A stretch of DNA of 44,426 nt from positions 1 to 44,426 of the IMG/VR virus record IMGVR_UViG_3300005581_000030, one strand, 5' to 3'. Numbering within the stretch: position 1 is the first letter of the stretch; each line of letters starts with the position of its first letter. The DNA is from a virus. Positions 6,038 to 41,445 of this stretch are shown in pieces. The translations under genes and the position numbers were made by a program. Under the pieces are notes generated by a model that was not told where the DNA came from, did no database searches, and was given only the letters and a program-made list of their open reading frames with translations.

Positions 6038-6421
6038 ATGGAAGAAGAGTGGAAACCAATCCAGATTAAACAGTTTGAAGGGCTGTACGAGGTCTCTAAC
6101 ACGGGCGAGGTTAGGTCTACTCCTAAAACGACATCAGATGGTCGTAGAATCAAAGCCAAGGTGCTTAGGAAGGGGAAGAATGGGGGTGGGTACTTCAATG
6201 TTACGCTATGCAACGATGGATTTAGACACACGATTGTTGTGCATAAACTGGTAGCCATTCATTTTGAGAAGATTTTCCACAACGAACATGCTATTGACAA
6301 CCTTCAAATCAACCACATAGATGGAAACAAATTAAATAACAGGGCTGACAATCTAGAAGCATGCACCCCGAGCGAAAACTTGCTACATGCGGTAAGAATG
6401 GGCTTAAGAACTTATAAATAA
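6038..6421 (+). CDS. NUMOD4/HNH homing endonuclease
   Basis: 127 residues. Residues 4-50 form a NUMOD4 domain (EEWKPI…GLYEVSNTGEVRS), a DNA-binding module of homing endonucleases. Residues 67-110 form an HNH nuclease (VVHKLVAIHF, then NHIDGNKLNNRADNLE with the His-Asn-His/Asn pattern). It begins 11 bp after the tRNA-Thr 3' end and ends by overlapping the next gene by one base (TAATG). It is a free-standing selfish nuclease, and the tRNA region could be its insertion or target site. No intron is visible. Confidence 0.88.
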   Translation: MEEEWKPIQIKQFEGLYEVSNTGEVRSTPKTTSDGRRIKAKVLRKGKNGGGYFNVTLCNDGFRHTIVVHKLVAIHFEKIFHNEHAIDNLQINHIDGNKLNNRADNLEACTPSENLLHAVRMGLRTYK

Positions 6422-8499: not shown

Positions 8500-10102
8500 T
8501 CTTGAATCTTACAAGCCTACTCCGCATCCAGTTGTAAAACTGCCCGATGTTAAGGCTCTTGTGGCAAAGTTTGGCACTGAAAAGGCCATTGAGATTCTTC
8601 AACTTAGAGAAGACAAAATCCTAGCAGAAAAACTAGACCCTTACAGGCATGGCTTTGAGCCGTGGCACTGGAAGGAGGCAGACCAAATTCTCAAGGACAA
8701 ACAGGAAATCTTGGTGCTTGGTGGAAACCGTGCTGGCAAAACAGAGTGGGCGGCTAAGCGTCTTATTCAGACAATGGTTAACAAGGACAAGGCTATGGTG
8801 TGGTGTCTGCATACCACGCACCAGTCCAGCATCCAGATGCAACAGAATGTTGTCTATAAGTACCTACCGCCCGAACTGAAAATTGCAAAAAAGACCAAGA
8901 TTACGAATGTTTCGTATTCCCAGAAGAACGGATTCAGCGACAACACCTTTATTTTGCCGAATGGCTCCCAGTGCGTGTTTATGAACTACGCCCAGAAGAA
9001 GGATGTTATTGAAGGTGGCGAATGCGACCTAATTTGGTGTGACGAACTTGTGCCCTTGGATTGGATTGACACCCTTCGCTACCGTGTTGTGACCCGCAGA
9101 GGCAAGTTGGTCGTTACATTTACACCTATTCAAGGGTATTCGCAGGTTGTTAAAGACTATGTGGCTGGCTGTAAGTTTACTAAGTCGCTCCGAGCCGAAC
9201 TTTTGGAAGAATCGTTAATGCATGTAAATGGTGTTCAGCGTGGTCATATGCCTTTTACCGCAGATTGTCACCGTCCTAACTCTGGAATTGCATGGTTTCA
9301 CTCTGCTTTGAATGTTTACTCGCCTTTTGACGAGATGAAGAAGACCCTAATGGGTCGAAATAACCACGAAATTAAGATTCGTGCATACGGATACGCTGAA
9401 AACACCGTTGGGTCTCAATTTCCCAGATTTGGCGACAATTCTATTGTTTCCCATGACAAAATCCCAGAGGAAGGTACGAACTACATGGTTGTTGACCCTG
9501 CTGGAGCAAGAAACTGGTTCATGTTATGGCTTCGTGTCACAAAAGAAGGTAAAATCTTCGTTTATAGGGAATTTCCAGACATGTCTCTTGGTGAATGGGC
9601 TTTGGCTTCGGATAAACCCGATGGAAAAGAAGGAGTTGCCCAAAGAAACGGTGCTGGAATGGGTCTGGATGAAATCAAGGCCACCATTCGCAAACTTGAA
9701 GGGGAGGAAGAAATCGCAGAAAGATATATTGACCCTCGTGCTGGTGCGACTCAAGCCATAGGCAAGGATGGCGGTACATCGTTGATGGAGTTGCTAGACG
9801 ATGGTGACGACCCTATGTACTTTGCCCCTGCGGCAGGGGTTGCCATTGAACAAGGCGTTGCCATTATCAATGACTGGTTTTCCTATGACCTTTCCCAGCC
9901 CCTAAGCCCTATCAACGAGCCTAGGTTGTTCATTTCGGACAAGTGCCAAAACCTTATTTACTGCCTAAAGGAGTGGACTGGTGCTGACGGTGAAAAGGGT
10001 GCTACAAAAGACCCTATTGACTGTTTGCGATATCTCTCTGTTATGTCTCCTGTGCATATCGGCAACGATTACACGCCAATAGGCAACCCTTTTATTTATT
10101 AA
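8480..10102 (+). CDS. terL: Terminase large subunit
   Basis: 540 residues, normal for the family. The ATPase domain has Walker A GGNRAGKT (81-88), Walker B LIWCDE (184-189) and a coupling motif TFTP (213-216). The C-terminal nuclease domain has an acidic motif VVDPAG near 337-342, a second aspartate in 'YIDPRAG' near 416, and 'KDPIDCLRYL' near the end. It cuts and pumps concatemeric DNA into proheads through the portal. No convincing small subunit lies beside it; the HTH gene at 41446 is the best candidate. One base separates it from the portal gene. Confidence 0.95.
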   Translation: MNKVQDSLESYKPTPHPVVKLPDVKALVAKFGTEKAIEILQLREDKILAEKLDPYRHGFEPWHWKEADQILKDKQEILVLGGNRAGKTEWAAKRLIQTMVNKDKAMVWCLHTTHQSSIQMQQNVVYKYLPPELKIAKKTKITNVSYSQKNGFSDNTFILPNGSQCVFMNYAQKKDVIEGGECDLIWCDELVPLDWIDTLRYRVVTRRGKLVVTFTPIQGYSQVVKDYVAGCKFTKSLRAELLEESLMHVNGVQRGHMPFTADCHRPNSGIAWFHSALNVYSPFDEMKKTLMGRNNHEIKIRAYGYAENTVGSQFPRFGDNSIVSHDKIPEEGTNYMVVDPAGARNWFMLWLRVTKEGKIFVYREFPDMSLGEWALASDKPDGKEGVAQRNGAGMGLDEIKATIRKLEGEEEIAERYIDPRAGATQAIGKDGGTSLMELLDDGDDPMYFAPAAGVAIEQGVAIINDWFSYDLSQPLSPINEPRLFISDKCQNLIYCLKEWTGADGEKGATKDPIDCLRYLSVMSPVHIGNDYTPIGNPFIY

Positions 10103-13628: not shown

Positions 13629-14729
13629 ATGGCTATTCTTACAGAACCTAAAATTACATCGGGTAAGCGGGAAGACCTCGCTGACCTCATCGCTATGGTC
13701 GATGCTCGTGATACTCCCTTCACCTCTATGGCGAAGAAGGGTAGCAAACCCGGAAATACTCACTTTCGCTGGCAGGTTGACCAGTTGCCTACCACCAAGT
13801 CTGGTGGCGTTATCGATGGCACTGATGTTGACCCCGTCACGGATGTGGAAAACTATGTCAAGGACACCGTTGGTGGTGTGACTAAGCAGTATCGCTACGA
13901 ACTGGGTATGCACCCGCAGATGTTCCGTAGAACTGTCCGTGTCTCCCCGATGGCTCTTGACCTTACTAACATCGCTGGTGTTAAGGATGAACTTGCTAAC
14001 AATGTTGCTAAGGCTATTAAGATGCTGAAGCGTGACATTGAAGTCACCCTTTGCGGTACGCAGGGTGCTCAGCAGGATACTGGTGTTGGTGGTGTTCCGT
14101 TCCTTACTCGTGGTCTTGACAAGTGGCTTGCCGTTAAGGGTGCTACCTCTGCGAACATCGCTGGTGGTGGTTCGGCTAACGCCGCCGCTTACGGTACTGT
14201 TGCTCAAGACACCTATCTGGCTGTCCCTGCGGACTTCCAGATGCCCGACACGCAGTTTAAGTATGGTACGGTTGCTAACGACCTTACTGAAGAAAACATT
14301 CAGAACCTTCTGACTGGTATGTATGAACAGACTGGTACTTCTAAGGAATATGACGCTCTTCTTGGTACTCGTTGCAAGCGTGGCTTTACGAACCTTGTCT
14401 TTACGACTGGCTCGTCTGGCTCTGCTGAAACCAGAAACGCTGTTCGTACATTCAATCGTGATGCCGCTGATTCGACATACACCGCTACGGTGCAGGTCTT
14501 TGAAGGCGATTTCGGCAGACTGAAGTTGCACTCTTCGACATGGTTGAAGAACAAGTTCGTTGGCTACATTATCCCGTTTGACATGGTCGAAGTTCGCTAC
14601 GGTGGGCAGGTTGCACAGGTCAGAGAACTCCCCGACTTCGGTGGTGGCCCTGCTCGTACCGTTGAAGCGGTTCTGGGTCTGGTTTGCCATAATCCGCTGG
14701 CGTTTGGTAAACTCGACTTCACTGCTTAA
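13629..14729 (+). CDS. Major capsid protein (DUF5309/SU10-like)
   Basis: 366 residues. The N-terminal pattern 'GKREDLADLIAMVDARDTPFTSMAKKG', the tryptophan-containing 'FRWQVDQLP' and the C-terminal 'FVGYIIPFDMVEVRYGGQVAQVRELPDFGGG…' fit the DUF5309 family of HK97-fold capsid proteins (SU10-type). It forms the icosahedral shell. It lies 4 bp after the scaffold gene. Codon choice is the most host-like and GC-ending of the late genes (GGT, GCT, CGT), as expected for the most highly expressed phage protein. Confidence 0.9.
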   Translation: MAILTEPKITSGKREDLADLIAMVDARDTPFTSMAKKGSKPGNTHFRWQVDQLPTTKSGGVIDGTDVDPVTDVENYVKDTVGGVTKQYRYELGMHPQMFRRTVRVSPMALDLTNIAGVKDELANNVAKAIKMLKRDIEVTLCGTQGAQQDTGVGGVPFLTRGLDKWLAVKGATSANIAGGGSANAAAYGTVAQDTYLAVPADFQMPDTQFKYGTVANDLTEENIQNLLTGMYEQTGTSKEYDALLGTRCKRGFTNLVFTTGSSGSAETRNAVRTFNRDAADSTYTATVQVFEGDFGRLKLHSSTWLKNKFVGYIIPFDMVEVRYGGQVAQVRELPDFGGGPARTVEAVLGLVCHNPLAFGKLDFTA

Positions 14730-20138: not shown

Positions 20139-20987
20139 ATGGGACTAGGAGATATTGCCGCAGGATTTGGCTCTAAGCCAAAAGACATGCCGTTGCCCAA
20201 GACATATGGGCAAATCGGTCAACAGAACATGGACATGCAAGCGGGATGGATGCCATCCTACTTGAACTATGAGCGTTCTTTTAGACCGCAGTGGCAGAAT
20301 GTAAACGAGTCTTCACTTGGCTCGCAGGTGTTTGGCGGTGCTGGCGGTGCTGGTTACCTTAGCATGCTTGGACAGGCTGGCTCTGGGTCTCTTGGACAGC
20401 AAGAGTCTTTGGGTGCTGGTCAACTGTCCATGATGGGCAGACTGCAAGGTGCGGCTAGAAATGCATACATGTCGCCCCAGATGCAACAGGCTCAGAACTC
20501 AATGTTCAACACAGCCCAGCAGTATGCTTCTGGGCAACTGAGTCAGCAAGACCGCTTTATGGCTGGTCAGACCGCAAACCAAGCGATGGCGGCTAGAGGT
20601 CTTACTGGCAGACAGGGCGTTGCGGCTAATGTGCTTGGCAACTATAATATGTCGCAGGACAGAATCATGCAGGGTCAGAAGATGTTGCAGGGCGTGTATG
20701 GCAACGAGGCTGGTGTGGCTGGCAATATTGCTAACCTTACGATGTCTGGTCTCGACCAGATGGGTTCCGCTGGGAAACTTATTGGTGGTGCTGGTCAGAC
20801 GCTTGGTCAGTATAACTCTGGTGTTATGAATCCCAGAGACCAACTTGGCTTCGACCAAGAAGCGGCTCGCTACAAGGCTGACATTAGCAATAGACTGGCT
20901 CAGCAGAAGTGGAAGGCTGGCATGTGGTCTGCGGCTGGCAACATGATTGACGATGGTATTAATGAAGCGTTCGGAGGATTCGGTTGA
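20139..20987 (+). CDS. Internal virion protein A-like (gp14 position)
   Basis: 282 residues, rich in Gly, Gln, Met and Ala with few charges (e.g. 'GGAGGAGYLSMLGQAGSG', 'QQYASGQLSQQDRFMAGQTANQAMAARG'). It is the first of three successive genes after the tail, matching the T7 gp14-gp15-gp16 order of proteins stored in the head and ejected through the envelope. Its small size and hydrophobic helices suit a gp14-like outer-membrane channel. The C-terminus 'NMIDDGINEAFGGFG' is typical of such proteins. Assignment by order and composition. Confidence 0.65.
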   Translation: MGLGDIAAGFGSKPKDMPLPKTYGQIGQQNMDMQAGWMPSYLNYERSFRPQWQNVNESSLGSQVFGGAGGAGYLSMLGQAGSGSLGQQESLGAGQLSMMGRLQGAARNAYMSPQMQQAQNSMFNTAQQYASGQLSQQDRFMAGQTANQAMAARGLTGRQGVAANVLGNYNMSQDRIMQGQKMLQGVYGNEAGVAGNIANLTMSGLDQMGSAGKLIGGAGQTLGQYNSGVMNPRDQLGFDQEAARYKADISNRLAQQKWKAGMWSAAGNMIDDGINEAFGGFG

Positions 20988-20989
20988 GT

Positions 20990-23062
20990 ATGGCTGAATC
21001 TTTTTATGACCCGAATTTGATGGCTGAACAGCAGAGGAATGCGACTCAGTCTACAGCGGGTTTTGACGCTTTTATTAAGGAAAGACGAGAACAGCGGGCA
21101 CAGTACGACAAGTCTAAGCAAGAGCGTGAGCAAATGATTGCGGCGGCAGAGGGTCTTGCCGAGCACTTTGCTCCGCAGGGCGAATCTGCTCCTGCCTACA
21201 TTGCTAAGTTCCTTAAGAAGGCCGAATCTGGTGGCGGTGTCCAGCAGTTGTCTTCGCAAGACATCGGCAAGTTCCTTGGCATGCACCAGACTGTTGCTAA
21301 ACAGCAAGAGTTTGAATCTGGTCAAGCGGACAAGGCTAGCAGTATTGCCCTCCGTGGTGCACAGATTGATGCGTCTAGAGCCTCTATTCCGCACACACAG
21401 GCACAGACTAGGTCTTTGGCTGGTGAGGAAACAAGAAAGCAAGCCGAGTATGACAGAGCACAGGTTCTTAATAAGTTCCTTGCTGAAACACAGGGTGCTG
21501 ACATTGGCACTCCTACTAATACAGTTACCGCACCCAAAGGTGTTGGCATTGAAAAACCTACATTTAAAGACCCTAGAACTGGCGAAACGGTTGAAATTGA
21601 CCAGTCTTCGTACAGCGAAATGGGTCTGGATGAAAACGGGCGTGTTGTTGACAAGGATGTCTTCACCTATGTTTCGAGCCTTGGTGCTGAAGAACTGTCT
21701 ACCATCATTGGTCACCACTTGGCTCCCTCTGCCGAAGTTAACATCAACAAGGAAATCGATGCTAGCCGTCCCAGATGGAAGCAAGTCATTGGTCTAGAGC
21801 CAGAGGTTATCTTTGATAAGGGTGGTTCTAGAAAAGATATTATTGGGCCTAACGGTAAGATTGATAAGGAAAAGCCGTTTAGCAAAAATATCGATAAACT
21901 CATTGATGTTATTAACCACAATCCTAGACTTTTTCCTGGGGGTGTTCCTAGAACCTACAAGGGAAGAACCATCGTGCAGGGCTACACTTGGACTGGCAAT
22001 GGTCGAAAGACTACGCTGACAGCCCCCGAAGTAGACACGCTACAGGAATTTGTTATCGATAGACTGCGTGAGGGTGGTTACGAGGACTTGGCTAATGTTG
22101 GTACGCTCATTAAGGGCCATAGAGAAATCACTAAGGTTAATGACACAAACGCTCTTCAGTTTGAAAAGAAGATGTTTACAGAAACGGTTGAACAGAGAAT
22201 TGACGATGAGGCCGCTCTTGCTAGCATTCGCTATGACCAAGTAGCCGCCAGATGGAGAGCACAGGGTCTTCCTCCTCCCCTGCCAAAGGCCGCTTACATT
22301 GCGGCTAGCGTACCAGACCTTACTAAGGTTGTTCCTGTGTTGGACTTGAGTGGTAGACCTACTGGTCAATACAAGACCTATGTTAAGGTTGGCGACACTT
22401 GGAAGGACGCTACCGTTGAAAAGGGTACTGAGGCTAGTGACAAGGAGGCTTGGATTAATACGGAAGCCAGAGGTAAGGACAACATGCTTAACTTTAGCGG
22501 TCAGTATGGCAATATTGCCGTCAGTGGCAGGGCTACAGCCTTTGACGAAAAGGGTGTTAGAGAACTTTCTGAGACGCTAAATGACATGGATGCGTTCAAC
22601 GAAGCCATGGACACGCTTAAAACACTGTACGAAAGCAAAAGTTTTATTGACAGAGTTAATCCTGCCAGTGGTGTCCGTGCACAGATTAAAGGTCTTATTG
22701 CTAGAAACCAGCCTCTTATTAGAAAAATTATTCTTGGCACTGGTGTTGTGACTGAACCCGACCAAGCCAGACTTAACCAGTTGTTCAGAGACCCAGATTC
22801 GTTTGAAACTTGGTTTAACGATGCGGCTAATGTTGCTGAATTTGAGGCCATTAAGGGTGTCATGGAGCAAAAGGCCGTTGCTCTTTTAAATATGCATAAG
22901 GTCGTTCAGCCCAATGGACAGAGAGGATTTATGATTACTGGTAATAACAGTAAGGGTAGGGGTAAGGCTCTTGAACTTCTTGCCGTTCACCAGCAGGGAT
23001 ATAAATTGACTCCTGCCGATATTGCTGTCATCAAAAAGCACAACCCCGCTTTTGGACAATGA
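20990..23062 (+). CDS. Internal virion protein B-like (gp15 position)
   Basis: 690 residues from ATG at 20990. A TTG at 20984 would add two codons, but the ATG follows 'cggagg' about 10 bp upstream, one of the few Shine-Dalgarno-like sites in the genome. The protein is helical, with a basic N-terminus ('FIKERREQRAQYDKSKQEREQM'), a mixed central part and long helices near 540-640 ('LSETLNDMDAFNEAMDTLKTLYES'). By order it is the T7 gp15 counterpart, forming a periplasmic tube. No enzymatic motif is recognised. It overlaps the giant gene by 4 bp (ATGA). Confidence 0.65.
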   Translation: MAESFYDPNLMAEQQRNATQSTAGFDAFIKERREQRAQYDKSKQEREQMIAAAEGLAEHFAPQGESAPAYIAKFLKKAESGGGVQQLSSQDIGKFLGMHQTVAKQQEFESGQADKASSIALRGAQIDASRASIPHTQAQTRSLAGEETRKQAEYDRAQVLNKFLAETQGADIGTPTNTVTAPKGVGIEKPTFKDPRTGETVEIDQSSYSEMGLDENGRVVDKDVFTYVSSLGAEELSTIIGHHLAPSAEVNINKEIDASRPRWKQVIGLEPEVIFDKGGSRKDIIGPNGKIDKEKPFSKNIDKLIDVINHNPRLFPGGVPRTYKGRTIVQGYTWTGNGRKTTLTAPEVDTLQEFVIDRLREGGYEDLANVGTLIKGHREITKVNDTNALQFEKKMFTETVEQRIDDEAALASIRYDQVAARWRAQGLPPPLPKAAYIAASVPDLTKVVPVLDLSGRPTGQYKTYVKVGDTWKDATVEKGTEASDKEAWINTEARGKDNMLNFSGQYGNIAVSGRATAFDEKGVRELSETLNDMDAFNEAMDTLKTLYESKSFIDRVNPASGVRAQIKGLIARNQPLIRKIILGTGVVTEPDQARLNQLFRDPDSFETWFNDAANVAEFEAIKGVMEQKAVALLNMHKVVQPNGQRGFMITGNNSKGRGKALELLAVHQQGYKLTPADIAVIKKHNPAFGQ

Positions 23063-26000
23063 GCAAATCCTTTTACTATGATAATGCTGAATCACTCGAA
23101 AAGATTCGGCAAGACATGGCCTTTCTTGATTCGGTAAAAGACCCGCTCAAGAATCCTTACAACTTAGCGGCTAAAGAAGAAGCCCCTAAAGAAGACGATG
23201 TTCTTACTAAGGGTGAGCGTGAGGCTTACCTTATTGGCAACTATGCCAAGGGTGGGTATGTGCCTACCGCTGACGGCTACTTGGCCTATGAAACATGGAA
23301 GAAGCAGAACGAGCCTAGTGCTTGGGGTACTATCTGGGAGGCTGGTAAGCATGCTGTTTCCACCGTTGCTGGTGGCATTTACGACACGGTTGCTAGCGGT
23401 GACATTCTAAATCCGCTTACTGTTGGCGGTACTGTTGTTGAAAGTGGTGGCAGGGGAACCAGATACTTCGTCAACATGCTTGACCAAATCAAGTATGACC
23501 CGACCAATCCTATTCATCGTACACTATTTCAGCAGGGCACTCCCGAACAGAGATATGCCGACTTCCAGAAGGGCTTGGAATTCCAGCGTGAAACCGCAGA
23601 GATTGAAAAGGCTGGTTATTGGGTTCCTAAGAAGGAGTGGGATGTTGAAGGATGGAAGATTCGCACCTTTAACGAAAGTGGGGTAGCGGCTGGCGAGATG
23701 GTTCTCGACCCGTCCATCCTTATGCCTCAACTAAAGATTGGTTCGATGCTTGGTAGGACTGCACTTGGTTCTGCTATTACTAAGTCTGCGGCTAGGATTG
23801 CTGTCAAGGGTGCTAACCTTGCTGAAAGAGCGGCTATGAAAATTGAAGGTGGTGCTGGCAAGGTTGCTGGAACTGCCATGGGCATCTTTGAATACCCTGC
23901 CAATAAGGCTAGCGAGTTCCTTGGTATCGAAACACTTACTACATCTAATGGTAAGGTCATTGCTAAGGACTCTATTATTCGTGGTTCTGGTGTTGCTCTT
24001 GGCGTGGGTGCTTACCTTGCACAGATTCCGTTTGCGGCTCCCGTTGCTGGTATTTGGCTTGGTGCTAAGGTAACAGAAATTACTGGTAAGACCATCGCTG
24101 AAGCGTTGGGTCATGCTAAGACTCCGTCCTATTTGACGATTGCTGACAGGCTTGCCTACCAGAGCACCGACCCTGCTGTCCGTGCTATCGGTGGTATTGC
24201 TATGCGTACCAACGGATTTACCGATTGGGCTACGCAGGGTGTTAAGTCCACATTCCACGGCTCCATGTATGGTGGTGCGTTTGGCTTTGCCCTTGCTGGC
24301 GAAGAAGGTTTCTACAGCGGGGTCGGTACTGGCATTGGTTTGGCTGGCTCGTTCCACATGCTTGGTGGTGCTTACGGTATCGTGGGCAACAGAAAGGAAC
24401 GCCAGATTGCCAACGCTCAGAAGCATTTTTCTTATGTCGCTGAAGGCTTTGATGAAGCCAAGCGTTATGGTGTGAACAGACTGCTACAGAACATTGAGGA
24501 AGTTTACGGGCAGGAAAAGATGTTCAGAACGATGGCTAACATTGCCGCCGCTGAGCGTTTTAACAAGAACGGCAAGAACCTTATTCTTACAACGGAACAG
24601 ATTCAAAGCATTCTTGGCGATTCTCCCGATTGGGCCGAGTACCAGAAGTTGATGAAAGACCCGCAGTTTGGTGGCTACACTACCAGACGGGCTGGTAGCG
24701 GTGAAATTGTAACTATTATCAATGCTGACTATGCGGCTCATTCTGCCGTGAGCGGTGAACTGTTTCACTCTGCGTTGCTTCAGCGTTACGGGCAGGGCAT
24801 GAAGGAGCATATTGTTAAGAGCCTCCTTGGCACTGCCGACAGCGATGGCTTCCTTTACAAGTTGGCTCCAGAAACTAGAATCAAAATGCTTGAAGACTTC
24901 AAGCGGGCTTACCTTGAACTGGATGACACTTCTGGTGGCGGTGCTCAGCGTTCTATGCTGAAGTCTTTTGACGAAGCCATCGAACGGGTTAAGCGTGGAG
25001 AGAAACCCGAGACCCTTTACCCTATCTTTGAAGAGTATGCCGAAGCGTACTTCAACAGATGGGTGGAAGACAAGCCCATTGACTACCTGCTTCGTGGCTC
25101 CAATCCGTTTGAATCCGTCTTTGACGGTGCTAAGAAGATGGTCAGAGGGCTTATCGATAGAGACATCGAACAGGTTGGCGGCAGAATGCAGTTTAAGTCT
25201 GGAGAACCAGAAGGGTTCTTCTTAGACGGCAACGGCAAGCGTGTGGTTGTTCCAGAATTCGACAAGGTCATGCGTCTACTTGTCCGTGAGATGAAGAGAG
25301 ACCCCGATGCCCTTGAAGGTTTCCCTATCCGAGACAATGTTAACCAGCACCATGTAATGCTTAAGGATGCTGAATACCTGTTTACAAAGGACGAAAGCGG
25401 TAAACTGGTTCGCAAGAACGAGGAGCAGATGGAAGTGGAATGGTCTAAGGGCATCACTGGACTAATGAACGCCCATGCTAAACTTAAGCCAGAAGAGAAG
25501 GGGCTTAGATTTACTCAGCGTGTCCTTTCGGCAGTTGAAGAAGATGTCGAAGGTGCGTTTGCCCCCAAGAGCAAGAAGGCTACCGAACTTGAGAAAGAGG
25601 CTAAGCGTCTTGAAAAGATTACGAAGCAGAGACAGGCTAAGTTGCTTCGTGAAGCGGCTCGTGCGGCTAAGTTGTCCGACAAGGAACAGCGTAAGTTGGC
25701 TAGAGAACAGGAGTCCAACCTTGACGCAGAAGTTGAACAATTAAGAGAGCAGTCTGAATACGAAGGTGTCGTTGAATACAAGATTGAGGGTTACATGACC
25801 GATGCTGAAATCAACTTGTTTACCGAACATCTTCCCAAGGCTGTAGTCCAGCGTATGGCGGCTTTTAACAGAGTCATTCATACCAAGGGTTCTGACGGCA
25901 ACAATGCTCTCAGATTTGATTATGAAAGCGAAACGAGCCAAAACTTCTCTTACACTAAGGAAGGTTCTCCGACTGGTGCAGGTAATGAGAAAAATAGTGG

Positions 26001-29000
26001 AAGAGTTAAAACGCGTGATATCGTCCCTTATGAAATGATTCTTAAGTTTGAGCGAAAGAGACTGACCAAGTCGCTCAGAGCAAAGTATGGCATTGACGAT
26101 GCAGACGCTATGTATGCCGCCATTAAGCCAGTGTTGCTTGTAAACGGAATCGACATGAAGGCGTTGGACAGACGAGTCCGCTACGCATACAACCACATGC
26201 GTAGACAGAACGCCACCAGTTCCATCTCGTCTGCCACGGTAAAGATGTACTACGAGTCGGAGGAAGAGATTCACCACGACATCAAGAGACTGCTTGGCAA
26301 CTACAGCCTTGGTGACATTGCCATGGCTGGTGCTGACTTCTTTGGTGGTGGCTCCGAGGGTCGTGCCAAGCGTGACATTATCAATGGCATCATTGGTGCT
26401 AGACCTGTACGCTTTAGCCCCGACAAGATGCAGAAGAAGGGGTATCACTACCCGCTTGACCTTCAGAGACCCATGACTGGCCCGAAGTCCAGATACGAAG
26501 GCGGGCCTCTTAACGAAGCGTTCATGGCGTTTACCTCTTTCAGAGTGGATAGAATGCTAGACAGACCTAAGCACCTACATGGTGAAGGTTTCTACTACGA
26601 CCACGACTACGCTCACCCCATGAACAAGGGCAACTTCCAGCCCCGCTCTAAGGCTCTGCGTGACCATGTCGGCAGACCTCTTAGTTATTCCGAGCGTCAG
26701 TTGCAGGACGAAACTGTTTTCAAGAGTCCCAGTGGTGAGCCTTACAGAGTCTTTGCCAGCAACAAGGAGGGTGGTGTTCATTACGCTTGGTTCGATGAAG
26801 GCCGAGCCGTTGACAACCATAGCCAGCATACCGAAGGCTACATCTCTCTTAGAAATAATGAGGTGCTGGACATGCTTAATGACGGCAAGATTGATTCCGT
26901 CAAAGACTTAAACGCCGACTTCATGCGTAAGGTAGCCGACATGGGCTACAAGGCTGTTGTTGCCAGAACAAACGATGGTGACCGTGTGGTTGCCTTCACT
27001 GACTTTAACAAGTTCAAGCAGACCGATGTGTCTGCCTTTGACCAACTGCTTGGCAACTTTGCCCCTAAGAGCAGAAGCATTGCCGAGATTACAAGAGAGC
27101 GTCTTGGTCTTACTGGTGCTACGCCCGCTACTCCCGAGGCTGGCAAGCCTATGACTCTGGCTGAGCGTACCAGAGCCAGACTTGGACTTCCTCAAAGTCC
27201 CGTTGAAATGCTTGCTGAGCGTACCTTCGGTGTGCCCAAGGCTGAACCAATCAAGATTGATGTAGCCACAGACATTGTAGTTGGCACTCCCGAGCGACAA
27301 ATGTCCCCCGAACAGACGGCTAAGGTTCAGAAGTCTCTTGCAATTAGAAAAGGTCTTCTTGCTGAGCGTGGACTACAGGGTGAAATTAGAAAAGAGATTC
27401 TTACTAACAGAAGAAAGTTTGCAGAAGCAATGGCTAAGACCAAGGAGTTCAAGGGGTGGTCTTCCACTGAGGTCTTTGATTCGATGTACACAAGCATCTG
27501 GGGTGAAAATGCCACCATCTCTATTACAAGTGGTGGCAAGGTTTCCCTTGGTGTTATCCAGTCTCTTAGCCCCAAGGAGTATGGGGCTTACAGAAGAGAC
27601 GGTGTGCTTCCTTCCGACATCAAGCAGAGAACCATTGCTGACATTGATATGGCTTTGATGGAAAACTGGAAGCGTAGACACCTTCTCCAGCAGTCGCTCG
27701 CCAAGACTAAGGCCAATGTTAAGATTGCCTTTGATGAAAGGCGTAAGCAGGAGGCTAAGTATTCCACTGAACTCGATGCCATTAGAAATGAACTTATTCA
27801 GATGCTCGCTTCGTACAAGATGTTCGATGTGGCTGATGATGTTCTTGGTGCTGAAATTGGAAAGAAGCGTGTAGGCCAAACCTACCGCAAGGAAGTAACT
27901 CCCGAAGTTGGTGGTTGGACTCCAGCCAAACAGATTACCGCACTGAACAGTCCCGATACTTTTGCCCAGTCCAAGGACAGGGCGTTCTCTTATAAGACCC
28001 TAAAGGCTTTGTATCCTTTGCTTGGCAGAACAGACCCTATTACTGCCATGGATGTCTTGTCTTTGGCAACGCCCGAGATGAAAGACATCCGAAAGGAAAT
28101 GAGCACGAGTGCTCTTAAGCATGTCATCGAGGAATTCAACCAGTACAACCTTGTTGAACACAGAAAGTGGCTTGCCGATAAGCAGAAAAGTCTAACGCAG
28201 TACGCCAAGGAGAAGGAGAAACTGGACAATGACATTAAGTCCGCTGAGTCTACCAGCAAGAAATACGACACCTCCGAGGCTAGAGCCAGAAGCAATGAGT
28301 TGGCTTCTAAGATTCGTGAAACAGAAAAGTCGCAAGACCCCATCATCGAAGAATGGAACATGCAGGACTACAAGGAGGAGATGGTTCACGAACTCCTTCA
28401 ACTTAAGCCAGACGAAAGAGCGGAAAGCATTGATGCATATAGAAAGCAGTTCGACATTAGTGGCAGAACCGATGAATGGCCCGAGGTCGAACAACTGCTA
28501 ATTAAGAGTGGCATCCTTCCCCCCGAGAAGATGACCAAGGAATACGGAAGAATCGTAGAAGTTAATGATGGCGAGAGGCGTGTGCTTGGTGGCGTTTCGG
28601 AGAACTACAAGGATGCCATGGACGAGGCTTACCGAGTCCTACAGCAGTCCATGAAGAAGGACAAGACCATCACGCCCCTCCAGCGTTTCACCGTAATGAT
28701 GCAGTCTGTCGCCAGACACTATAAGAAGAACCCTGCTCTCCGTGAGAAGATGAAGCAGTTGGAATCCCTGTTCAAGGAGACGGAACAACTGACCGACTTT
28801 AACCTTAAGCGAGCGTATAAGAAGATGCTCGACTACGGCTTTGTGTCGATGAACTGGGACGGCGATGGAAAGAAAGTTGTCCTAGATGCCACTGGTCACT
28901 ATGTCGAAAGAGTAAGCCCGCCTAAGAAGGAGATTGGCATGGACTTCGGTAAACTTCGTATGCCCAAGGGCTGGACGATGAAGCAGGAGCGTGTTGTTCT

Positions 29001-32000
29001 TACCTCTACTGATGGTATCAAGGTATCCAACCATGAGATGGAGAAGGCCATCAGAGACATGCGAGCCAGATTTGGCGAACAACTTGAACAACTTAGTGAT
29101 GACCAAATTATTGAATTGGCAAAAGACAATAAGGCTGGCGTTGCTACTGAAACAGTTAAAGAAGGAAGAAGAATTGGAGAAGATAAACTAACAAACATTT
29201 ACCTTACTGGTGAGGCTAGAACCATTAGACGCTGGGCGGCTTTTGAAGAGCGTAAGGATAACACCTACGAAGAGACCGACTCTAGAATTATTTATGTTGA
29301 AAAGAAACCCAAGTACATCTTGGCTAAGGGTGTTAAGTCGGACAAGATGATGGTCATCCCTGTTTCTGAAACTACTTTTGACAAAAAGAAGGGTACTTTC
29401 TACTGGTCTCGTGACAGACAACTTAACGAAAAGACTAAGGCTCGTAGTTATTCTAACATTGAATCGTGGTTGGGCGAAGAAGGAACGGTGTTTAGGTCTG
29501 TTCACGACTTAACCCTTGGTGATACCTCCGATGTCTATGGTGCTTACAAGCCCAACGGCTGGCACATTGACGGCAAGTACTTCAAGACACAGGACGAAGC
29601 CAAGCGTCTTGCCGTTATCGATGCTGAAAACAACCACGCCTACGAAGCCGTCTACAAGACTGCTAAGCGGCTAGACAAGGATGCTTACATTACTGTTCTT
29701 CAAATGATTCAGAACAGCACTGGGATTACATACCAGAATGCCATCAAGGAAGCCATCGGGTTTCAAGGAACACGAAAGAAATGGATTGATAATCCCGACT
29801 ATAACCCGAACAAGCCTTGGTCTTTGCAGGACAATCCTCGCAAGATTCAAGTAAAGGAAGACTTCACTGGTGCTAATGTTCCTCCCGAGTTCAAGAAACT
29901 TGCCATCTATAGAGCGGGCAACATGTTGCTTGTTACTTCCGACAACAGAAGGGATGTTCTTACCAGACTTACTGCCGAGGCTAAGGTCTCTGTTAGGGGT
30001 GGAAGAACTAAGAACATTGAAGCGATTGCCCGTGAGGCTATCGGTGAGCGTGAAACAGGCAAGAAGGTGCTTGGAGACTTGTATAGAATCGTCAAGGACG
30101 AGAACGGTCAGATGGCTGGCATTGATTGGATTACCCATTACGACAACCCCAGACAGGTGTCGGAAATGATTACCAAGATGAACGACCAGTCTTATGTAGA
30201 CCTAGATACCGCCGTTGAATTCCAGCGTAGGCTTACAAAAGAAATTAAGCCTGTCCTTGCCAAGGCTTTCAAGGAAGAGAAGAAGAAGATTTACACGGTG
30301 CTTACTGAAAACCCGAAGAAGATTCGGGAAATTAGAAGCAGACTCAATGCTATCGAAGAGGCTCACGAAAAGTCCGTAGAAGACACTGGTATTATTATCA
30401 AAAAGGGACTGAAGCCTTCTGCTAAGAAAGACTTCATTAACAGAAACCTTGATAGGCTTAACCGCCAGACCAATGAACTTACTGACACCATTGAAAGGAA
30501 GTTGCATTACATTTTTACGATGGGCTTCCACAGAAGACCCGAAGTTGCTGAAAGACTTATTGGTGAAGGCAAGTACTTTGAAGACAAGACCAGCGTTGAT
30601 AATTACTACGAGGAAATTCTTGAAGACAGAAGACGGCAAAGATACATTAGAGACGAGAATGGTAATGTTCTAATTGAATATCCAGAAACTGATGCTCTTT
30701 CTACTAAGAAGAAGTTGGAAGACAGCCTTGGTGAAATCGAGAAGTCTTGGTCTGACATGATGCCGAAGAACAGGGCTACCGCTTTGCTTGAGGATGTGCT
30801 CAATGGTACATACAATGAAGAGCATGAACTTCTAACCAAGCAGATTGACTTCCTTAAGAGACAGTTATCCATGGCGGCTGGTGGCACTGAAAAGGTTAAG
30901 GCTGGTCTTACTGGATTAAGTATCGACAAGAAGGCTGGTGCTGGAAGATGGATTGGCCCTAAGGAACAAGCGGCTGAAGAGGCTAAACTTGCCAGAATTG
31001 AGAAAAGCATCCCAAAGAAGTATGAAGAAGTACCTCTTGGCACAGTCGAAAAACTCCTTGAGGGTACGCAGGGTCTTAGCGACAAGAAGGTTGAACGCTT
31101 CCCTACATACCTTCCTCCCGAAGGAGAATCGTTTGTGTCTGCCAGAGACTACTTAGATAGATTCCAGCGGTTGGTCAGCGACATTGCTGAAGCCAACAAG
31201 AAGTTTGGCGACTCCGCTTCTCTGGACAAACTAGACCTCCAGAAGATTCTGGACACCGATGCTGACCTGTTGCCTACCAAGGAAGTAGATGCCCATGTCG
31301 CTAGACAGGAGTCCCTTGATGCGATGAAGGACAACATTCGTAACATCGAGGAATACTTTGACCGTAGCACACAGCCTCAAGAAGGTAAGGACTTCAAGTC
31401 TGCCGTTGATGTTTGGGGACTTGCTGAAGGTCAGTGGATGGCTGAAATTAGCGAGAACAGAATCAATGCGGCTGTTCGTGCCGCTATGGAAGGAAGACAA
31501 GACCATGTCATTCTTGCCAATAGGGCTAACCAGAAAATCAAGACCCATTACGAAGGTATTATTAAGGCTAGAATGGCTGTTATTGATGCCAATTTTGCCA
31601 AACTTTCCCCAGAACTAAAGCCAATTTACATCAAGTATTTGGAGAGAGTCCGTGACGGTTTGGCTGTCGAGCGGGCGGCTGAACTGGAGCGTGTACAGTC
31701 AGAGATTGCTACTATCAATGAAACTGCTGTCGAGTATAGTCTGACACCAGACAATCCTAAGTTGGCTGGACTGCTGGCTAAGTGGCAGGAGTTGGGGATG
31801 AAGGGTGACCCTATGACGATGTACTCCTCCAAGGAGGAAAGCGTCCGTAGAATGTTCCCGTTCCTGTTCTCTGAATTCTATCCCAGCAGACAGGACATTG
31901 CTACCTCATCTTCCTATACCAAGTGGGAGTCCAGAGCCACGGACGAAGCGGTTGCCTCTGACACGACCAAAACTGGCAATAGACAGGGCATGAATGTCGG

Positions 32001-34026
32001 TGGTTTTACGACAACCAACCCGATTGTTGCTGAAGTTATTCGCAACGAACAGACAAGAAACAAGTTCCTTAGCATGCGTGGTCTCCGTGAGATTGACCTG
32101 TTTGCCGCCGCTCTTGCTAAAAAGAATGCTGTTGAAACGCAGTTCAACAATGGTGGCAAGGACGCTGTTGTACAGATTGATGCCGAAGGTTACGCCCTTC
32201 TTGAACGGTACTTCCCAGAACTTACTGAAGGCAAGGAAGGCCCAGATGGTAAGCCCATCTGGAAGATTAACTTCAAGATTAACAAGGAGGCTGGCTACGA
32301 GGATTCGTTTGCCACTGCTGGATACGCTAAGCGTGTGCGTGAAGAGAAGAAGGTCGGAGAGATTGCCCTAGAGGGCGGTCTCATTGACAAGGCTTTCAAT
32401 TACTTCTTGGACGAGGTGACCATGAACCAGTCCCACATCGAGCATGCTATTGCTAGACTCAGTGGCAAGGAACGACTGGCTGAACTTACCGCCCCAGAGA
32501 ACCTTTCCCCCAACGGCAAGATTGACATTAGAAAACTCAATGTCGAAGAACTAGACTTTGCTTTCCATGTGCTAGGCAAGGCTAAGATTACAAACGAAAA
32601 GGCACACATGTCGGTCATCGAACTGACGAGCAATCCGTTGTATGCCAAGAGCATGATTCTTGCCTTCTCTAGAAACAAGGAGGGTAGCCTACAGTCTATC
32701 TTTGGAGACGACCCTCAGAAGTCTGCCACCTTCCTTGCACTGAACCTTAGTGATAAGAAGAAGTTTGTTGACGAAATCGTTAGACAGATTGAATTCTCCA
32801 AGGACAAGATTGAGTCCGAAAAGGCTAAGTCCAACAAGGAAACCATTGATGCTTCCATTGCTACGGCTTGGAAGGTTAAGGAACTGGAGAAGATTTCCAA
32901 GGAGCAGGTGGATGCCGCCAAGCACCTGTTACTTGAGTTGGCTAAGACCGACTCTGCGGTCAAGGCATACAAGGGGAAGGTGGAACAGTTCTGGTCTAGC
33001 AGACCGCAAGCCAGAACAAACATCCTTAGCATCGATGACTCGCTAAAGTTGCTTTCTCCCAACATGGAATACGGCAAGGCTATCATTGGTGCTGACGGTA
33101 AGACCGTTGATGTTCCAGTTGCTAACCCCAACGATGCCTTGTTCAGAACGGCTAACGGCATGTTCCACGCCTTCAAGCAGGGTGGTTCGTACAAGTTGTT
33201 CTTCGCTGGCTACAAGTCTGCGGACGGAAATGTCAGCATTGCTCCGTCCCACATTATGACGGCTCCCGACCTACAGAGATTGCAGGTTGGCATTAGAATG
33301 TTCCATGACGATGTGAAGCGTGTGGAGGTCATGTCTAAAACCGCAACCGACAGCATTGAACTTAAGGGTGCTGAAGTTGCCTCGTTCTCTGGTTCGTTCT
33401 TTGAGACGCACGGTGGCTCTATTGCTCCCGACCTGTTGAAGGCTCTGCAATTTAACCTTGCCCAGATTGGCAACTACCCCGACACGACATGGCTGGTCAC
33501 GCCAGAGAGCGGTAACAAGAGACAGATTGTTATCTATCCTAACACCACTACATGGGACAAACTCCATAACAGCGGAGAATACATTAAGAAGGATGGCTCG
33601 TGGTATAAAGACCCTGCTGTGCAAAACGCCCAAGAGCGTCTTGACCGTGCCCGTCTTGAACTAGAAAGCCAGCAGGTTGCCGATGTCACTACGGCTGAAC
33701 CAAAGCCCAGCGAAATCATTTCCGAAACCGCCAACATATCCAAGCACGACCAGCCCGATGCAAAGGACAAGAGAGCCGAAGCCATCGACAACAAGGTGGT
33801 CATGCAGGTCATCGAAGAGGGCGACATCTATAATGGCACTAGCGTGGAACCCGCCATGCAGGATTGGACTGCTCTAAAAAATAGAGACGGATGGGTAGTC
33901 ATGCGGGAGCAGAGTCGTGATGCCAAGGGATGGAAGACTAGGTTCAAGACCTTCTTCCCCAGCGGTGTGCTTGCTGGCATTGATGCAAACGAGGAGGACG
34001 CTGTGTCCAGAATGTTCAATGAGTGA
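23059..34026 (+). CDS. Giant 3,655-residue ejection/polyvalent protein (gp16 position)
   Basis: At 10,968 bp it takes about 25% of the genome. By order it is the last of three ejection proteins (T7 gp16 position), but it is nearly three times gp16's length (1,318 residues). Residues about 225-445 are Gly/Ala-rich with several hydrophobic stretches (near 310-344 and 402-444) that could insert in membrane. Residues about 1220-1322 resemble ADP-ribosyltransferase-like domains of large polyvalent phage proteins ('PYRVFASNKEGGVHYAWF' … 'ADMGYKAVVARTND'). A short repeated linker (AE-x-TR-x-RLGL) follows at about 1340-1390. Long charged helices fill most of 830-3400. I found no lysozyme-type, helicase, methylase or HExxH motif. 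Confidence 0.75.
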   Translation: MSKSFYYDNAESLEKIRQDMAFLDSVKDPLKNPYNLAAKEEAPKEDDVLTKGEREAYLIGNYAKGGYVPTADGYLAYETWKKQNEPSAWGTIWEAGKHAVSTVAGGIYDTVASGDILNPLTVGGTVVESGGRGTRYFVNMLDQIKYDPTNPIHRTLFQQGTPEQRYADFQKGLEFQRETAEIEKAGYWVPKKEWDVEGWKIRTFNESGVAAGEMVLDPSILMPQLKIGSMLGRTALGSAITKSAARIAVKGANLAERAAMKIEGGAGKVAGTAMGIFEYPANKASEFLGIETLTTSNGKVIAKDSIIRGSGVALGVGAYLAQIPFAAPVAGIWLGAKVTEITGKTIAEALGHAKTPSYLTIADRLAYQSTDPAVRAIGGIAMRTNGFTDWATQGVKSTFHGSMYGGAFGFALAGEEGFYSGVGTGIGLAGSFHMLGGAYGIVGNRKERQIANAQKHFSYVAEGFDEAKRYGVNRLLQNIEEVYGQEKMFRTMANIAAAERFNKNGKNLILTTEQIQSILGDSPDWAEYQKLMKDPQFGGYTTRRAGSGEIVTIINADYAAHSAVSGELFHSALLQRYGQGMKEHIVKSLLGTADSDGFLYKLAPETRIKMLEDFKRAYLELDDTSGGGAQRSMLKSFDEAIERVKRGEKPETLYPIFEEYAEAYFNRWVEDKPIDYLLRGSNPFESVFDGAKKMVRGLIDRDIEQVGGRMQFKSGEPEGFFLDGNGKRVVVPEFDKVMRLLVREMKRDPDALEGFPIRDNVNQHHVMLKDAEYLFTKDESGKLVRKNEEQMEVEWSKGITGLMNAHAKLKPEEKGLRFTQRVLSAVEEDVEGAFAPKSKKATELEKEAKRLEKITKQRQAKLLREAARAAKLSDKEQRKLAREQESNLDAEVEQLREQSEYEGVVEYKIEGYMTDAEINLFTEHLPKAVVQRMAAFNRVIHTKGSDGNNALRFDYESETSQNFSYTKEGSPTGAGNEKNSGRVKTRDIVPYEMILKFERKRLTKSLRAKYGIDDADAMYAAIKPVLLVNGIDMKALDRRVRYAYNHMRRQNATSSISSATVKMYYESEEEIHHDIKRLLGNYSLGDIAMAGADFFGGGSEGRAKRDIINGIIGARPVRFSPDKMQKKGYHYPLDLQRPMTGPKSRYEGGPLNEAFMAFTSFRVDRMLDRPKHLHGEGFYYDHDYAHPMNKGNFQPRSKALRDHVGRPLSYSERQLQDETVFKSPSGEPYRVFASNKEGGVHYAWFDEGRAVDNHSQHTEGYISLRNNEVLDMLNDGKIDSVKDLNADFMRKVADMGYKAVVARTNDGDRVVAFTDFNKFKQTDVSAFDQLLGNFAPKSRSIAEITRERLGLTGATPATPEAGKPMTLAERTRARLGLPQSPVEMLAERTFGVPKAEPIKIDVATDIVVGTPERQMSPEQTAKVQKSLAIRKGLLAERGLQGEIRKEILTNRRKFAEAMAKTKEFKGWSSTEVFDSMYTSIWGENATISITSGGKVSLGVIQSLSPKEYGAYRRDGVLPSDIKQRTIADIDMALMENWKRRHLLQQSLAKTKANVKIAFDERRKQEAKYSTELDAIRNELIQMLASYKMFDVADDVLGAEIGKKRVGQTYRKEVTPEVGGWTPAKQITALNSPDTFAQSKDRAFSYKTLKALYPLLGRTDPITAMDVLSLATPEMKDIRKEMSTSALKHVIEEFNQYNLVEHRKWLADKQKSLTQYAKEKEKLDNDIKSAESTSKKYDTSEARARSNELASKIRETEKSQDPIIEEWNMQDYKEEMVHELLQLKPDERAESIDAYRKQFDISGRTDEWPEVEQLLIKSGILPPEKMTKEYGRIVEVNDGERRVLGGVSENYKDAMDEAYRVLQQSMKKDKTITPLQRFTVMMQSVARHYKKNPALREKMKQLESLFKETEQLTDFNLKRAYKKMLDYGFVSMNWDGDGKKVVLDATGHYVERVSPPKKEIGMDFGKLRMPKGWTMKQERVVLTSTDGIKVSNHEMEKAIRDMRARFGEQLEQLSDDQIIELAKDNKAGVATETVKEGRRIGEDKLTNIYLTGEARTIRRWAAFEERKDNTYEETDSRIIYVEKKPKYILAKGVKSDKMMVIPVSETTFDKKKGTFYWSRDRQLNEKTKARSYSNIESWLGEEGTVFRSVHDLTLGDTSDVYGAYKPNGWHIDGKYFKTQDEAKRLAVIDAENNHAYEAVYKTAKRLDKDAYITVLQMIQNSTGITYQNAIKEAIGFQGTRKKWIDNPDYNPNKPWSLQDNPRKIQVKEDFTGANVPPEFKKLAIYRAGNMLLVTSDNRRDVLTRLTAEAKVSVRGGRTKNIEAIAREAIGERETGKKVLGDLYRIVKDENGQMAGIDWITHYDNPRQVSEMITKMNDQSYVDLDTAVEFQRRLTKEIKPVLAKAFKEEKKKIYTVLTENPKKIREIRSRLNAIEEAHEKSVEDTGIIIKKGLKPSAKKDFINRNLDRLNRQTNELTDTIERKLHYIFTMGFHRRPEVAERLIGEGKYFEDKTSVDNYYEEILEDRRRQRYIRDENGNVLIEYPETDALSTKKKLEDSLGEIEKSWSDMMPKNRATALLEDVLNGTYNEEHELLTKQIDFLKRQLSMAAGGTEKVKAGLTGLSIDKKAGAGRWIGPKEQAAEEAKLARIEKSIPKKYEEVPLGTVEKLLEGTQGLSDKKVERFPTYLPPEGESFVSARDYLDRFQRLVSDIAEANKKFGDSASLDKLDLQKILDTDADLLPTKEVDAHVARQESLDAMKDNIRNIEEYFDRSTQPQEGKDFKSAVDVWGLAEGQWMAEISENRINAAVRAAMEGRQDHVILANRANQKIKTHYEGIIKARMAVIDANFAKLSPELKPIYIKYLERVRDGLAVERAAELERVQSEIATINETAVEYSLTPDNPKLAGLLAKWQELGMKGDPMTMYSSKEESVRRMFPFLFSEFYPSRQDIATSSSYTKWESRATDEAVASDTTKTGNRQGMNVGGFTTTNPIVAEVIRNEQTRNKFLSMRGLREIDLFAAALAKKNAVETQFNNGGKDAVVQIDAEGYALLERYFPELTEGKEGPDGKPIWKINFKINKEAGYEDSFATAGYAKRVREEKKVGEIALEGGLIDKAFNYFLDEVTMNQSHIEHAIARLSGKERLAELTAPENLSPNGKIDIRKLNVEELDFAFHVLGKAKITNEKAHMSVIELTSNPLYAKSMILAFSRNKEGSLQSIFGDDPQKSATFLALNLSDKKKFVDEIVRQIEFSKDKIESEKAKSNKETIDASIATAWKVKELEKISKEQVDAAKHLLLELAKTDSAVKAYKGKVEQFWSSRPQARTNILSIDDSLKLLSPNMEYGKAIIGADGKTVDVPVANPNDALFRTANGMFHAFKQGGSYKLFFAGYKSADGNVSIAPSHIMTAPDLQRLQVGIRMFHDDVKRVEVMSKTATDSIELKGAEVASFSGSFFETHGGSIAPDLLKALQFNLAQIGNYPDTTWLVTPESGNKRQIVIYPNTTTWDKLHNSGEYIKKDGSWYKDPAVQNAQERLDRARLELESQQVADVTTAEPKPSEIISETANISKHDQPDAKDKRAEAIDNKVVMQVIEEGDIYNGTSVEPAMQDWTALKNRDGWVVMREQSRDAKGWKTRFKTFFPSGVLAGIDANEEDAVSRMFNE

Positions 34027-34321
34027 CCGCTCCCTACAGGAAGTAGCCGCAGAGTTCATCAAAGGTGGATGGATTGTAGCCATCCTTGGTGCTCTGGGAG
34101 CAACGGCTAGGCTTATGCTGTCCCCGCAGAAGCACCACTGGATTGTGTGGGCTAAGAAGATTACGGCTGGTGGTATTGTGGGGGTGCTTACCTACTTTGC
34201 CCTATACCCCATCGACATTGACCCCATGTACAAGGCGGTCATGTTTAGCATCAGCGGAGCCTTGGCTCCAGAAATCTTTGAAGCAGTAACCATAAAGTTT
34301 AAAGAAAAGTTTCTAAAGTGA
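34019..34321 (+). CDS. Holin (LydA / superfamily III-like)
   Basis: 100 residues from ATG at 34019, which overlaps the end of the giant gene by 8 bp; longer in-frame starts lie within that gene. Three hydrophobic segments lie at about 14-29 (GGWIVAILGALGATARL), 46-62 (ITAGGIVGVLTYFALYP) and 69-85 (YKAVMFSISGALAPEIF). A charged tail (KFKEKFLK) follows. The 'LGA.aRl' and late 'G..aPei' pattern resembles LydA-type holins. It would time lysis by permeabilising the inner membrane. The next gene is spanin-like, supporting a lysis cassette. Confidence 0.7.
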   Translation: MSDRSLQEVAAEFIKGGWIVAILGALGATARLMLSPQKHHWIVWAKKITAGGIVGVLTYFALYPIDIDPMYKAVMFSISGALAPEIFEAVTIKFKEKFLK

Positions 34322-35076: not shown

Positions 35077-35126
35077 TGCAGGTGGCGTTGGGTATTGTGC
35101 GTTTGTGGGATTAGCCTAGTTTAAGC

Positions 35127-35166
35127 GGACTACCCCTCTGACTAACCTGCTAGGAGGGGCTAGTCC
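35127..35166. terminator. Hairpin between converging modules, possible bidirectional terminator
   Basis: GGACTACCCCTC (35127-35138) pairs with GAGGGGCTAGTCC (35154-35166) with one bulged base and a 15-base loop. It lies in the 96-bp gap between the last + strand lysis gene and the end of the - strand operon, where a two-way terminator is expected. No T-run is present on either side, so intrinsic termination is not certain. Confidence 0.55.
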
Positions 35167-35172
35167 CACCAT

Positions 35173-37238: not shown

Positions 37239-37245
37239 TCGGAAA

Positions 37246-37317: not shown

Positions 37318-37323
37318 GAAACC

Positions 37324-38010: not shown

Positions 38011-38013
38011 AAA

Positions 38014-41437: not shown

Positions 41438-41445
41438 GTGTTTTT

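What the first reader, a model, noticed from the sequence alone, without database searches (positions are those of the whole stretch)
23059..34026. A single ejection-type gene occupies a quarter of the genome
The 3,655-residue product follows the gp14- and gp15-like genes, where T7 encodes the 1,318-residue gp16. Its bulk is charged helix with no recognised enzyme core, apart from one transferase-like region and an N-terminal hydrophobic block. A protein this large must unfold to pass through a short tail and probably delivers several effector domains to the cell.
Basis: partly seen in the sequence, partly recalled or inferred. Interest (0 to 1): 0.7.

Follow-up and report, generated by a model that had tools for sequence, protein, structure and literature searches.

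The report
Cysteine-free giant phage ejection protein
A quarter of this phage's sequence encodes one 3,655-residue protein without a single cysteine, most likely injected into the host cell at infection; it belongs to a family that keeps the same front end but carries different huge back ends, and proteins known to be injected by other phages are likewise almost cysteine-free.

Summary
In detail: one intact ORF, 23059-34026, 3,655 aa, 24.7% of the 44,426-base record, under purifying selection along its whole length (omega 0.06-0.15). Homologues of 3,467-3,836 aa occupy the same slot in relatives, third after two smaller genes. More distant relatives carry 5,615-6,323 aa versions, up to 38.5% of the record. 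Profile comparison shows a shared head (about residues 50-1240; E 1e-23) and no detectable similarity between the two clades' payloads. The head contains a zincin metallopeptidase-like site: intact HExxH or HExxxH in 12 of 12 distant relatives, first histidine lost in 27 of 27 close ones. Foldseek links the head to models of phage 'large polyvalent' proteins. The giant and the two genes before it contain no cysteine in 4,629 aa (59 expected); ejection proteins of seven podophages have 8 in 19,401 aa, against 633 in 58,568 elsewhere. The reading as an ejected polyvalent-type protein is well supported. No sequence homology to T7 gp14-16 or N4 vRNAP was found, the payload's function is unknown, and presence in virions is untested.

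The parts
23059..34026 (+). Giant gene, 3,655 aa, 0 Cys: third ejection-type protein
23206..26778 (+). Conserved head, about residues 50-1240, shared with the 5,615-6,323 aa giants of distant relatives
   Evidence: hhalign prob 99.6, E 1.2e-23 over 66-1208; single giants and reversed controls
24676..25128 (+). Degenerate zincin-like metallopeptidase domain, residues about 540-690
   Evidence: aligned with HExxH domain of distant giants, prob 96.2, E 2.5e-9
24754..24768 (+). Former HExxH site, residues 566-570, here G-E-L-F-H (first His lost)
   Evidence: 27 of 27 close relatives lack the first His, 27 of 27 keep E567 and H570
25030..25035 (+). Glu658-Glu659, aligned with the distal glutamate (third metal ligand) of the distant relatives
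   Evidence: 26 of 26 rows with letters; E287 invariant in A4
26779..34023 (+). Clade-specific payload, residues 1241-3655; no recognised domain
   Evidence: model of 2456-3655 mostly helical, pLDDT 63.5
20139..20987 (+). 282-aa gene in the gp14 position, 0 Cys
20984..23062 (+). 692-aa gene in the gp15 position, 0 Cys, overlaps start of the giant by 4 bases
6421..8499 (+). 692-aa, 0-Cys gene directly upstream of the terminase; a C-terminal stretch of 118 aa shared with the 0-Cys gene that follows the giant in relatives; candidate further ejected cargo
8480..10102 (+). Terminase large subunit (context)
   Evidence: PF03237, phrog_2
13629..14729 (+). SU10-type major capsid protein (context)
   Evidence: PF17236 E 1e-38

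Best explanation
The gene encodes the third and last ejection protein of a podovirus-like phage with an SU10-type capsid. The protein is packed in the head, leaves through the tail with the 282- and 692-aa proteins, crosses the envelope at least partly unfolded, and refolds. Its N-terminal ~1,240 residues are a conserved docking/processing head that holds a former zincin peptidase; the remaining ~2,400 residues are a clade-specific payload delivered to the cell. The chain has been purged of cysteine, probably because a thiol in a chain threaded through the oxidising periplasm could be trapped in a disulfide. In this clade the peptidase has lost its first zinc ligand, so self-cleavage of the payload, possible in distant relatives, is unlikely here. 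Shown: gene, conservation, slot, head/payload split, zincin ancestry, lost ligand, absence of cysteine. Inferred: packaging, ejection, unfolding, periplasmic reason, payload role.
For: Slot and co-conservation of the three genes in relatives. 0 Cys in 4,629 aa versus 59 expected; 8 Cys in 94,943 aa over 27 giants, rows partly redundant, 4 in 69,045 aa over 20 non-redundant ones. Known ejection proteins of seven podophages 8/19,401 aa versus 633/58,568 in other ORFs, 26-fold; SU10 gp20-24, shown ejected in PMC9509320 (passages), have none, nor has N4 vRNAP. Head/payload split. Zincin site. BFVD fold matches, 7 with E <= 1e-3, four of them named polyvalent or ART-PolyVal-like. Purifying selection.
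Against: No virion proteomics. No sequence similarity of any of the three proteins to proven ejection proteins. Absence of cysteine is not specific: 14 of 154 other ORFs (2 of 45 of 400 aa or more) in the seven phages also have none, and epsilon15 and crAss001 ejection proteins have a few. Distant giant G018 has 10 Cys in 5,615 aa. The AlphaFold head model is poor (pLDDT 53.6), and its Foldseek and VIA matches in the PDB are at chance.
Confidence: 0.78

Rival explanations
1. A giant virion-packaged RNA polymerase of the N4 kind whose polymerase domain has diverged beyond recognition, needed to start early transcription.
For: Similar length (3,500 aa in N4), same third slot, 0 Cys, a zincin-type domain in both (N4 passages).
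Against: Profile of the family against N4 vRNAP is at the level of the reversed control; no Pfam polymerase hit in 25 and 24 members scanned in two parts nor in consensus pieces.
Confidence: 0.08
2. A structural internal scaffold or tail component (for example a tape-measure-like or core protein) that stays in the particle and delivers nothing.
For: Helical, charged, long; weak Foldseek rows include tape measure proteins (E 0.06 and above).
Against: Payload replaced between clades while the head is kept, GNAT-like insertion in one subclade, no cysteine as in ejected proteins, no internal repeats found.
Confidence: 0.1
3. A cell-internal early protein that is not packaged.
For: No proteomics; distant relatives carry active-looking peptidase sites.
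Against: Lies on the strand and in the row of the structural genes, overlapping the 692-aa gene by 4 bases, after the tail genes.
Confidence: 0.04

Closest known systems
Large polyvalent proteins (Iyer et al. 2017, PMC5512222; abstract, passages and the Peptidases section seen)
   Same: Very large phage proteins proposed to be injected; zincin MPTase as the most common domain, including an HExxxH variant, which also occurs in 4 of the 12 distant relatives here; GNAT and ART domains among their parts; fold matches of the head to models so named.
   Different: In the window's clade the zincin has lost its first histidine in 27 of 27 members, no other domain can be named, and no Pfam model matches.
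N4 virion RNA polymerase gp50 (PMC12633501, passages seen)
   Same: About 3,500 aa, third ejection protein of an operon of three, 0 Cys, zincin-type motif (HELVH at 2228).
   Different: No detectable homology; no polymerase found; the zincin lies in the N-terminal head here, in the C-terminal part in N4.
T7 gp16, phiKMV gp37, SU10 gp24
   Same: Last gene of the ejection block, 0 Cys.
   Different: Less than half the size, no sequence homology found.
BcepIL02 gp70 (4,667 aa, annotated DarB-like)
   Same: Giant last gene of the virion block, 0 Cys, one HExxH.
   Different: No detectable homology.

Membership tests
Podophage ejection protein (third, gp16 place) | Third gene of a block of three after the tail genes | tested here: met
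   Same order in the window and in relatives; in 2 loci another gene sits between the first two
Podophage ejection protein (third, gp16 place) | Packed in the virion and lost on ejection | not testable with these tools
   needs proteomics
Podophage ejection protein (third, gp16 place) | Homology to T7 gp16, SU10 gp24, P22 gp16, phiKMV gp37 or N4 gp50 | tested here: inconclusive
   hhalign probabilities 1.1% or lower for these, reversed controls up to 0.9%; no homology found, divergence could hide it
Zincin metallopeptidase (MPTase of polyvalent proteins) | HExxH or HExxxH | tested here: not met
   Window has G-E-L-F-H; 0 of 27 close relatives have the first His; 12 of 12 distant ones have the motif
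Zincin metallopeptidase (MPTase of polyvalent proteins) | Distal glutamate in a second helix | tested here: met
   E658/E659 in 26 of 26; model puts its residues 504-522 (653-671 of the protein) in a helix (low confidence)
Large polyvalent protein | Two or more domains of unlike activity in one chain | tested here: inconclusive
   Only the degenerate zincin can be named; payload unassigned
Large polyvalent protein | Structural or sequence relation to named polyvalent proteins | tested here: met
   BFVD Foldseek E 1e-11 to 4e-7 for four models so named, prob 1.00, from a low-confidence model
N4-type virion RNA polymerase | Single-subunit RNA polymerase domain | tested here: inconclusive
   no hit by Pfam or hhalign

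The most novel reading that the evidence does not exclude
Proteins that tailed phages thread into the cell are purged of cysteine as a class, because a free thiol in an extended chain crossing the oxidising periplasm is dangerous. Absence of cysteine is then a sequence-readable mark of the ejectome, and in this lineage it reveals, beside the giant, further injected cargo (the gene before the terminase and the gene after the giant), some of it sharing an exchangeable C-terminal packing tag.
Probability: 0.4. Interest if true: 0.8.

Novelty: new variant of a known kind. Interest (0 to 1): 0.6.

Why it matters
It gives a well-sampled natural series (27 close and 12 distant homologues) of giant ejection-type proteins with one head and two unrelated kinds of payload, up to 6,323 residues, and a peptidase site that is intact in one clade and broken in the other. 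If the cysteine rule holds generally, ejected proteins could be recognised from sequence alone, and how very long chains cross the envelope becomes directly testable by adding cysteines to the ejection proteins of a laboratory phage.

Tried and rejected
Nothing found: Pfam on the giant, on 25 N-terminal and 24 C-terminal members, on consensus pieces, on distant giants and their payloads (only stray rows below the cut-offs); PHROGs; PDB by sequence and profile; tblastn of both halves against 50,697 phage records; relatives in bacterial genomes (70 pattern matches, none confirmed). Foldseek and VIA against the PDB gave only chance-level rows for both models; rows that look suggestive there, such as the N4 RNAP domain or a zincin toxin at E above 2, were not used. 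ART-like motif near residues 1226-1345: seen by eye in the family consensus, not confirmed by Pfam, kept only as a lead. Internal repeats: none found. sigma-70 promoter scan of 30000-44426: no excess over shuffles, so it says nothing on who transcribes the early genes.

Caveats on counts: the 23-member set of the 282-aa family was chosen by length and by zero cysteine, so its '0 Cys in 6,512 aa' is circular; the fair check is, where every BLAST hit of that protein (self and duplicates included) had 0 Cys. The window background of 1.28% Cys comes from mechanical ORFs, at least one of them (antisense to the capsid gene) spurious; over the 15 assigned or well-placed ORFs of the same list it is 67 in 5,177 (hand sum). 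Ejected labels for phiKMV and epsilon15 are recalled; those of N4, T7, SU10, P22 and crAss001 come from passages or abstracts seen. crAss001 gp49 and gp50, also packaged, were counted among 'other'. BcepIL02 was not in the pool. The first dN/dS run was spoiled by an indel and was redone. A4 holds 11 of the 12 distant sequences (one near-duplicate left out). The 27 close giants include near-identical rows.

No statement on cysteine in ejection proteins was found in print: searches (open-access library only) and term look-ups in PMC8954989, PMC12633501 and PMC10172136 (0 occurrences of 'cystein'); subscription papers were not seen, so this is no proof of novelty.

Full report
Observation. The ORF 23059-34026 is intact, 3,655 codons, 24.7% of a 44,426-base virus record. 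It is a selected gene, not a chance frame: against the 94% identical copy in L001, dN/dS is 0.106 overall and between 0.06 and 0.15 in every block of 400 residues, the poorly conserved middle included.

Context. The record has a terminase, a putative portal by position, a scaffold-like gene (phrog_8865), an SU10-type capsid protein, tail genes with collar-fibre similarity, then genes of 282, 692 and 3,655 aa, and a right part with Erf, RusA, an IstB/DnaA-like ATPase, a replication initiator and a PD-(D/E)XK nuclease. The nearest named phages are remote: the terminase is 30% identical to that of phage C75C1, and the giant has no tblastn match in 50,697 phage records. [quoted passage not shown]

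Relatives. The terminase found 80 IMG/VR loci. Of 38 records chosen from these, 11 encode a homologue of the giant's first 1,200 residues; with an alignment as query, 27 loci were found. Family 1 (26 of these loci with the window, 27 sequences; L146, a short fragment, left out) has giants of 3,467-3,836 aa where complete, down to about 20% identity to the window. L130 has its giant split into ORFs of 293 and 3,486 aa. Records with terminases about 60% identical carry far larger genes: 5,615, 5,737, 5,749, 6,259 and 6,323 aa in the five read whole; the last takes 38.5% of its 49.2-kb record.

Architecture. Profile against profile, family 1 and the five distant giants align collinearly over residues 66-1208 and 99-1238 (prob 99.6, E 1.2e-23), and their remaining 2,415 and 5,043 residues show nothing above chance. 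Single giants gave the same picture, more weakly for G027 (19%), with reversed sequences below 1%. So the chain is a conserved head plus a payload that differs between clades. Within family 1 the payload is collinear but diverged (identity of the divergent members to the window mostly 5-20% after residue 1,240). One subclade (L132, L134) has an extra 253-255 residues after residue 1,196; the L134 insert has a GNAT-like match below the Pfam cut-off (18.3 against 20.7 bits), the L132 insert has none.

A zincin in the head. All 12 distant heads examined carry HExxH (8) or HExxxH (4) at one homologous place, after a stretch ending in a conserved Asn; in A4 (11 of them) His131, Glu132, His135 and a distal Glu287 are invariant. 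A1 and A4 align with prob 96.2 and E 2.5e-9, placing the window's G566-E-L-F-H570 on the motif and F-E658-E659 on the distal glutamate. In family 1, 27 of 27 lack the first histidine (Glu 19, Gly 7, Ala 1), while E567 and H570 (27 of 27) and E658 and E659 (26 of 26) are kept. The metal site has therefore changed in family 1 while its surroundings stay conserved. The five distant giants have a second motif, LHE(x)QH, in the payload (positions 2045-2362); a lone HExxH would be weak, as 71-115 of 500 shuffles of those proteins contain one, but the five share motif and approximate place. Iyer et al. (PMC5512222; abstract, passages, Peptidases section) describe such MPTases, HExxxH variants included, as the commonest domain of polyvalent proteins and suggest self-processing of the injected chain as one role. 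In the window's clade that route looks closed.

Structure. AlphaFold of residues 150-1345 (25 sequences) reached pLDDT 53.6 with better stretches near 450-650 and 900-1050; of 2456-3655 (24 sequences), 63.5, mostly helical with a small beta-rich C-terminal end. Against the PDB both gave chance-level rows. Against BFVD the head gave 7 matches at E <= 1e-3, all with probability 1.00, six of them from uncultured Caudovirales phages; two are named 'Large polyvalent protein associated domain', two 'ART-PolyVal-like', one 'NAT_SF', one uncharacterised, one without a name. TM-scores are low (0.10-0.24) because the model is loosely packed. This supports placing the head among polyvalent-type proteins, with that reserve.

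Cysteine. The giant has no cysteine, nor have the 282- and 692-aa proteins: 0 in 4,629 aa, 59 expected from the other 26 ORFs of the window. Over the family: 8 Cys in 94,943 aa of 27 giants, 20 of them with none; 3 in 16,469 aa of 24 members of the 692-aa family; all BLAST hits of the 282-aa protein have none. The distant giants have 16 in 29,683 aa, 10 of these in G018. To calibrate this I counted phages whose ejection proteins are known: N4 0 of 4,300 aa, SU10 0 of 2,971, P22 0 of 1,309, phiKMV 0 of 2,417, T7 1 of 2,286, crAss001 3 of 3,717, epsilon15 4 of 2,401; pooled 8 of 19,401, against 633 of 58,568 in the other ORFs of the same stretches, 26-fold. BcepIL02 gp70, 4,667 aa, has none. The mark is strong but not exclusive (14 of 154 other ORFs have no Cys, only 2 of 45 when 400 aa or longer). 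I infer that chains which cross the periplasm extended cannot afford thiols; the N4 authors argue for beads-on-a-string translocation through a ~35 A channel (PMC12633501, passages) and the crAss001 authors for partial unfolding (PMC10172136, passages). Term look-ups found no mention of cysteine in either.

Other cargo. The window's 6421-8499 gene, directly before the terminase, has 692 codons and no Cys; in close relatives (terminase about 70% identical or more) the nearest listed ORF before the terminase has no Cys in 36 of 38 loci that have one (hand count). A stretch of 118 residues near its C-terminus is 51% identical to the end of the zero-Cys gene that follows the giant in L001, a place where 17 of 24 loci have a zero-Cys ORF and 7, the window among them, do not. 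An exchangeable tag on variable cargo would explain this.

Verdict. A real, conserved, giant ejection-type protein of the polyvalent kind, with a degenerate zincin in its head and an unassigned payload. Ejection is well supported by position, cysteine content and kinship, and not proven.

Noticed in passing
window 6421-8499: 692-aa gene without cysteine directly upstream of the terminase; a zero-Cys ORF holds this place in 36 of 38 close relatives with a listed ORF there (hand count); a 118-aa C-terminal stretch is exchanged with the gene after the giant in relatives.
   Followed up: partly
L129 20084-21379, L137 19195-21835, L142 12807-14882 and others: Variable zero-Cys gene after the giant in 17 of 24 loci; by eye some have ADP-ribosyltransferase-like N-termini, Pfam finds nothing.
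   Followed up: partly
L165 193-19161 (-), L166 1125-19901: Single phage genes of 6,323 and 6,259 codons in 49-kb records, with a second zincin-like motif (LHExQH) near residue 2350.
   Followed up: partly
L132, L134, giant after residue 1196 (window numbering): Subclade-specific 253-255 aa insertion, GNAT-like in L134.
   Followed up: partly
L130 2770-3648 and 3705-14162: Giant split into two ORFs of 293 and 3,486 aa; sequencing error or real split not resolved.
   Followed up: no
L148 5996-6796, L149 5816-6613: A gene of 266-267 aa with 7 Cys is inserted between the first two ejection-type genes; its cysteine content sets it apart from its neighbours.
   Followed up: no
L135 (record of 88,287 bases): Twice the usual record length, but the giant's region occurs only once, so not a simple dimer.
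   Followed up: partly
window 5951-6026 and 37246-37317: tRNA-Thr(TGT) and tRNA-Arg(TCT) genes.
   Followed up: no
L003 (phage C75C1), 38751-7576 across the origin, 7573-8700 and 8707-12738: Nearest named phage by terminase also has a giant zero-Cys gene (2,524 residues read in one piece here) followed by 375- and 1,343-aa zero-Cys genes; no detectable homology of the giant and the 1,343-aa protein to the window's giant.
   Followed up: partly
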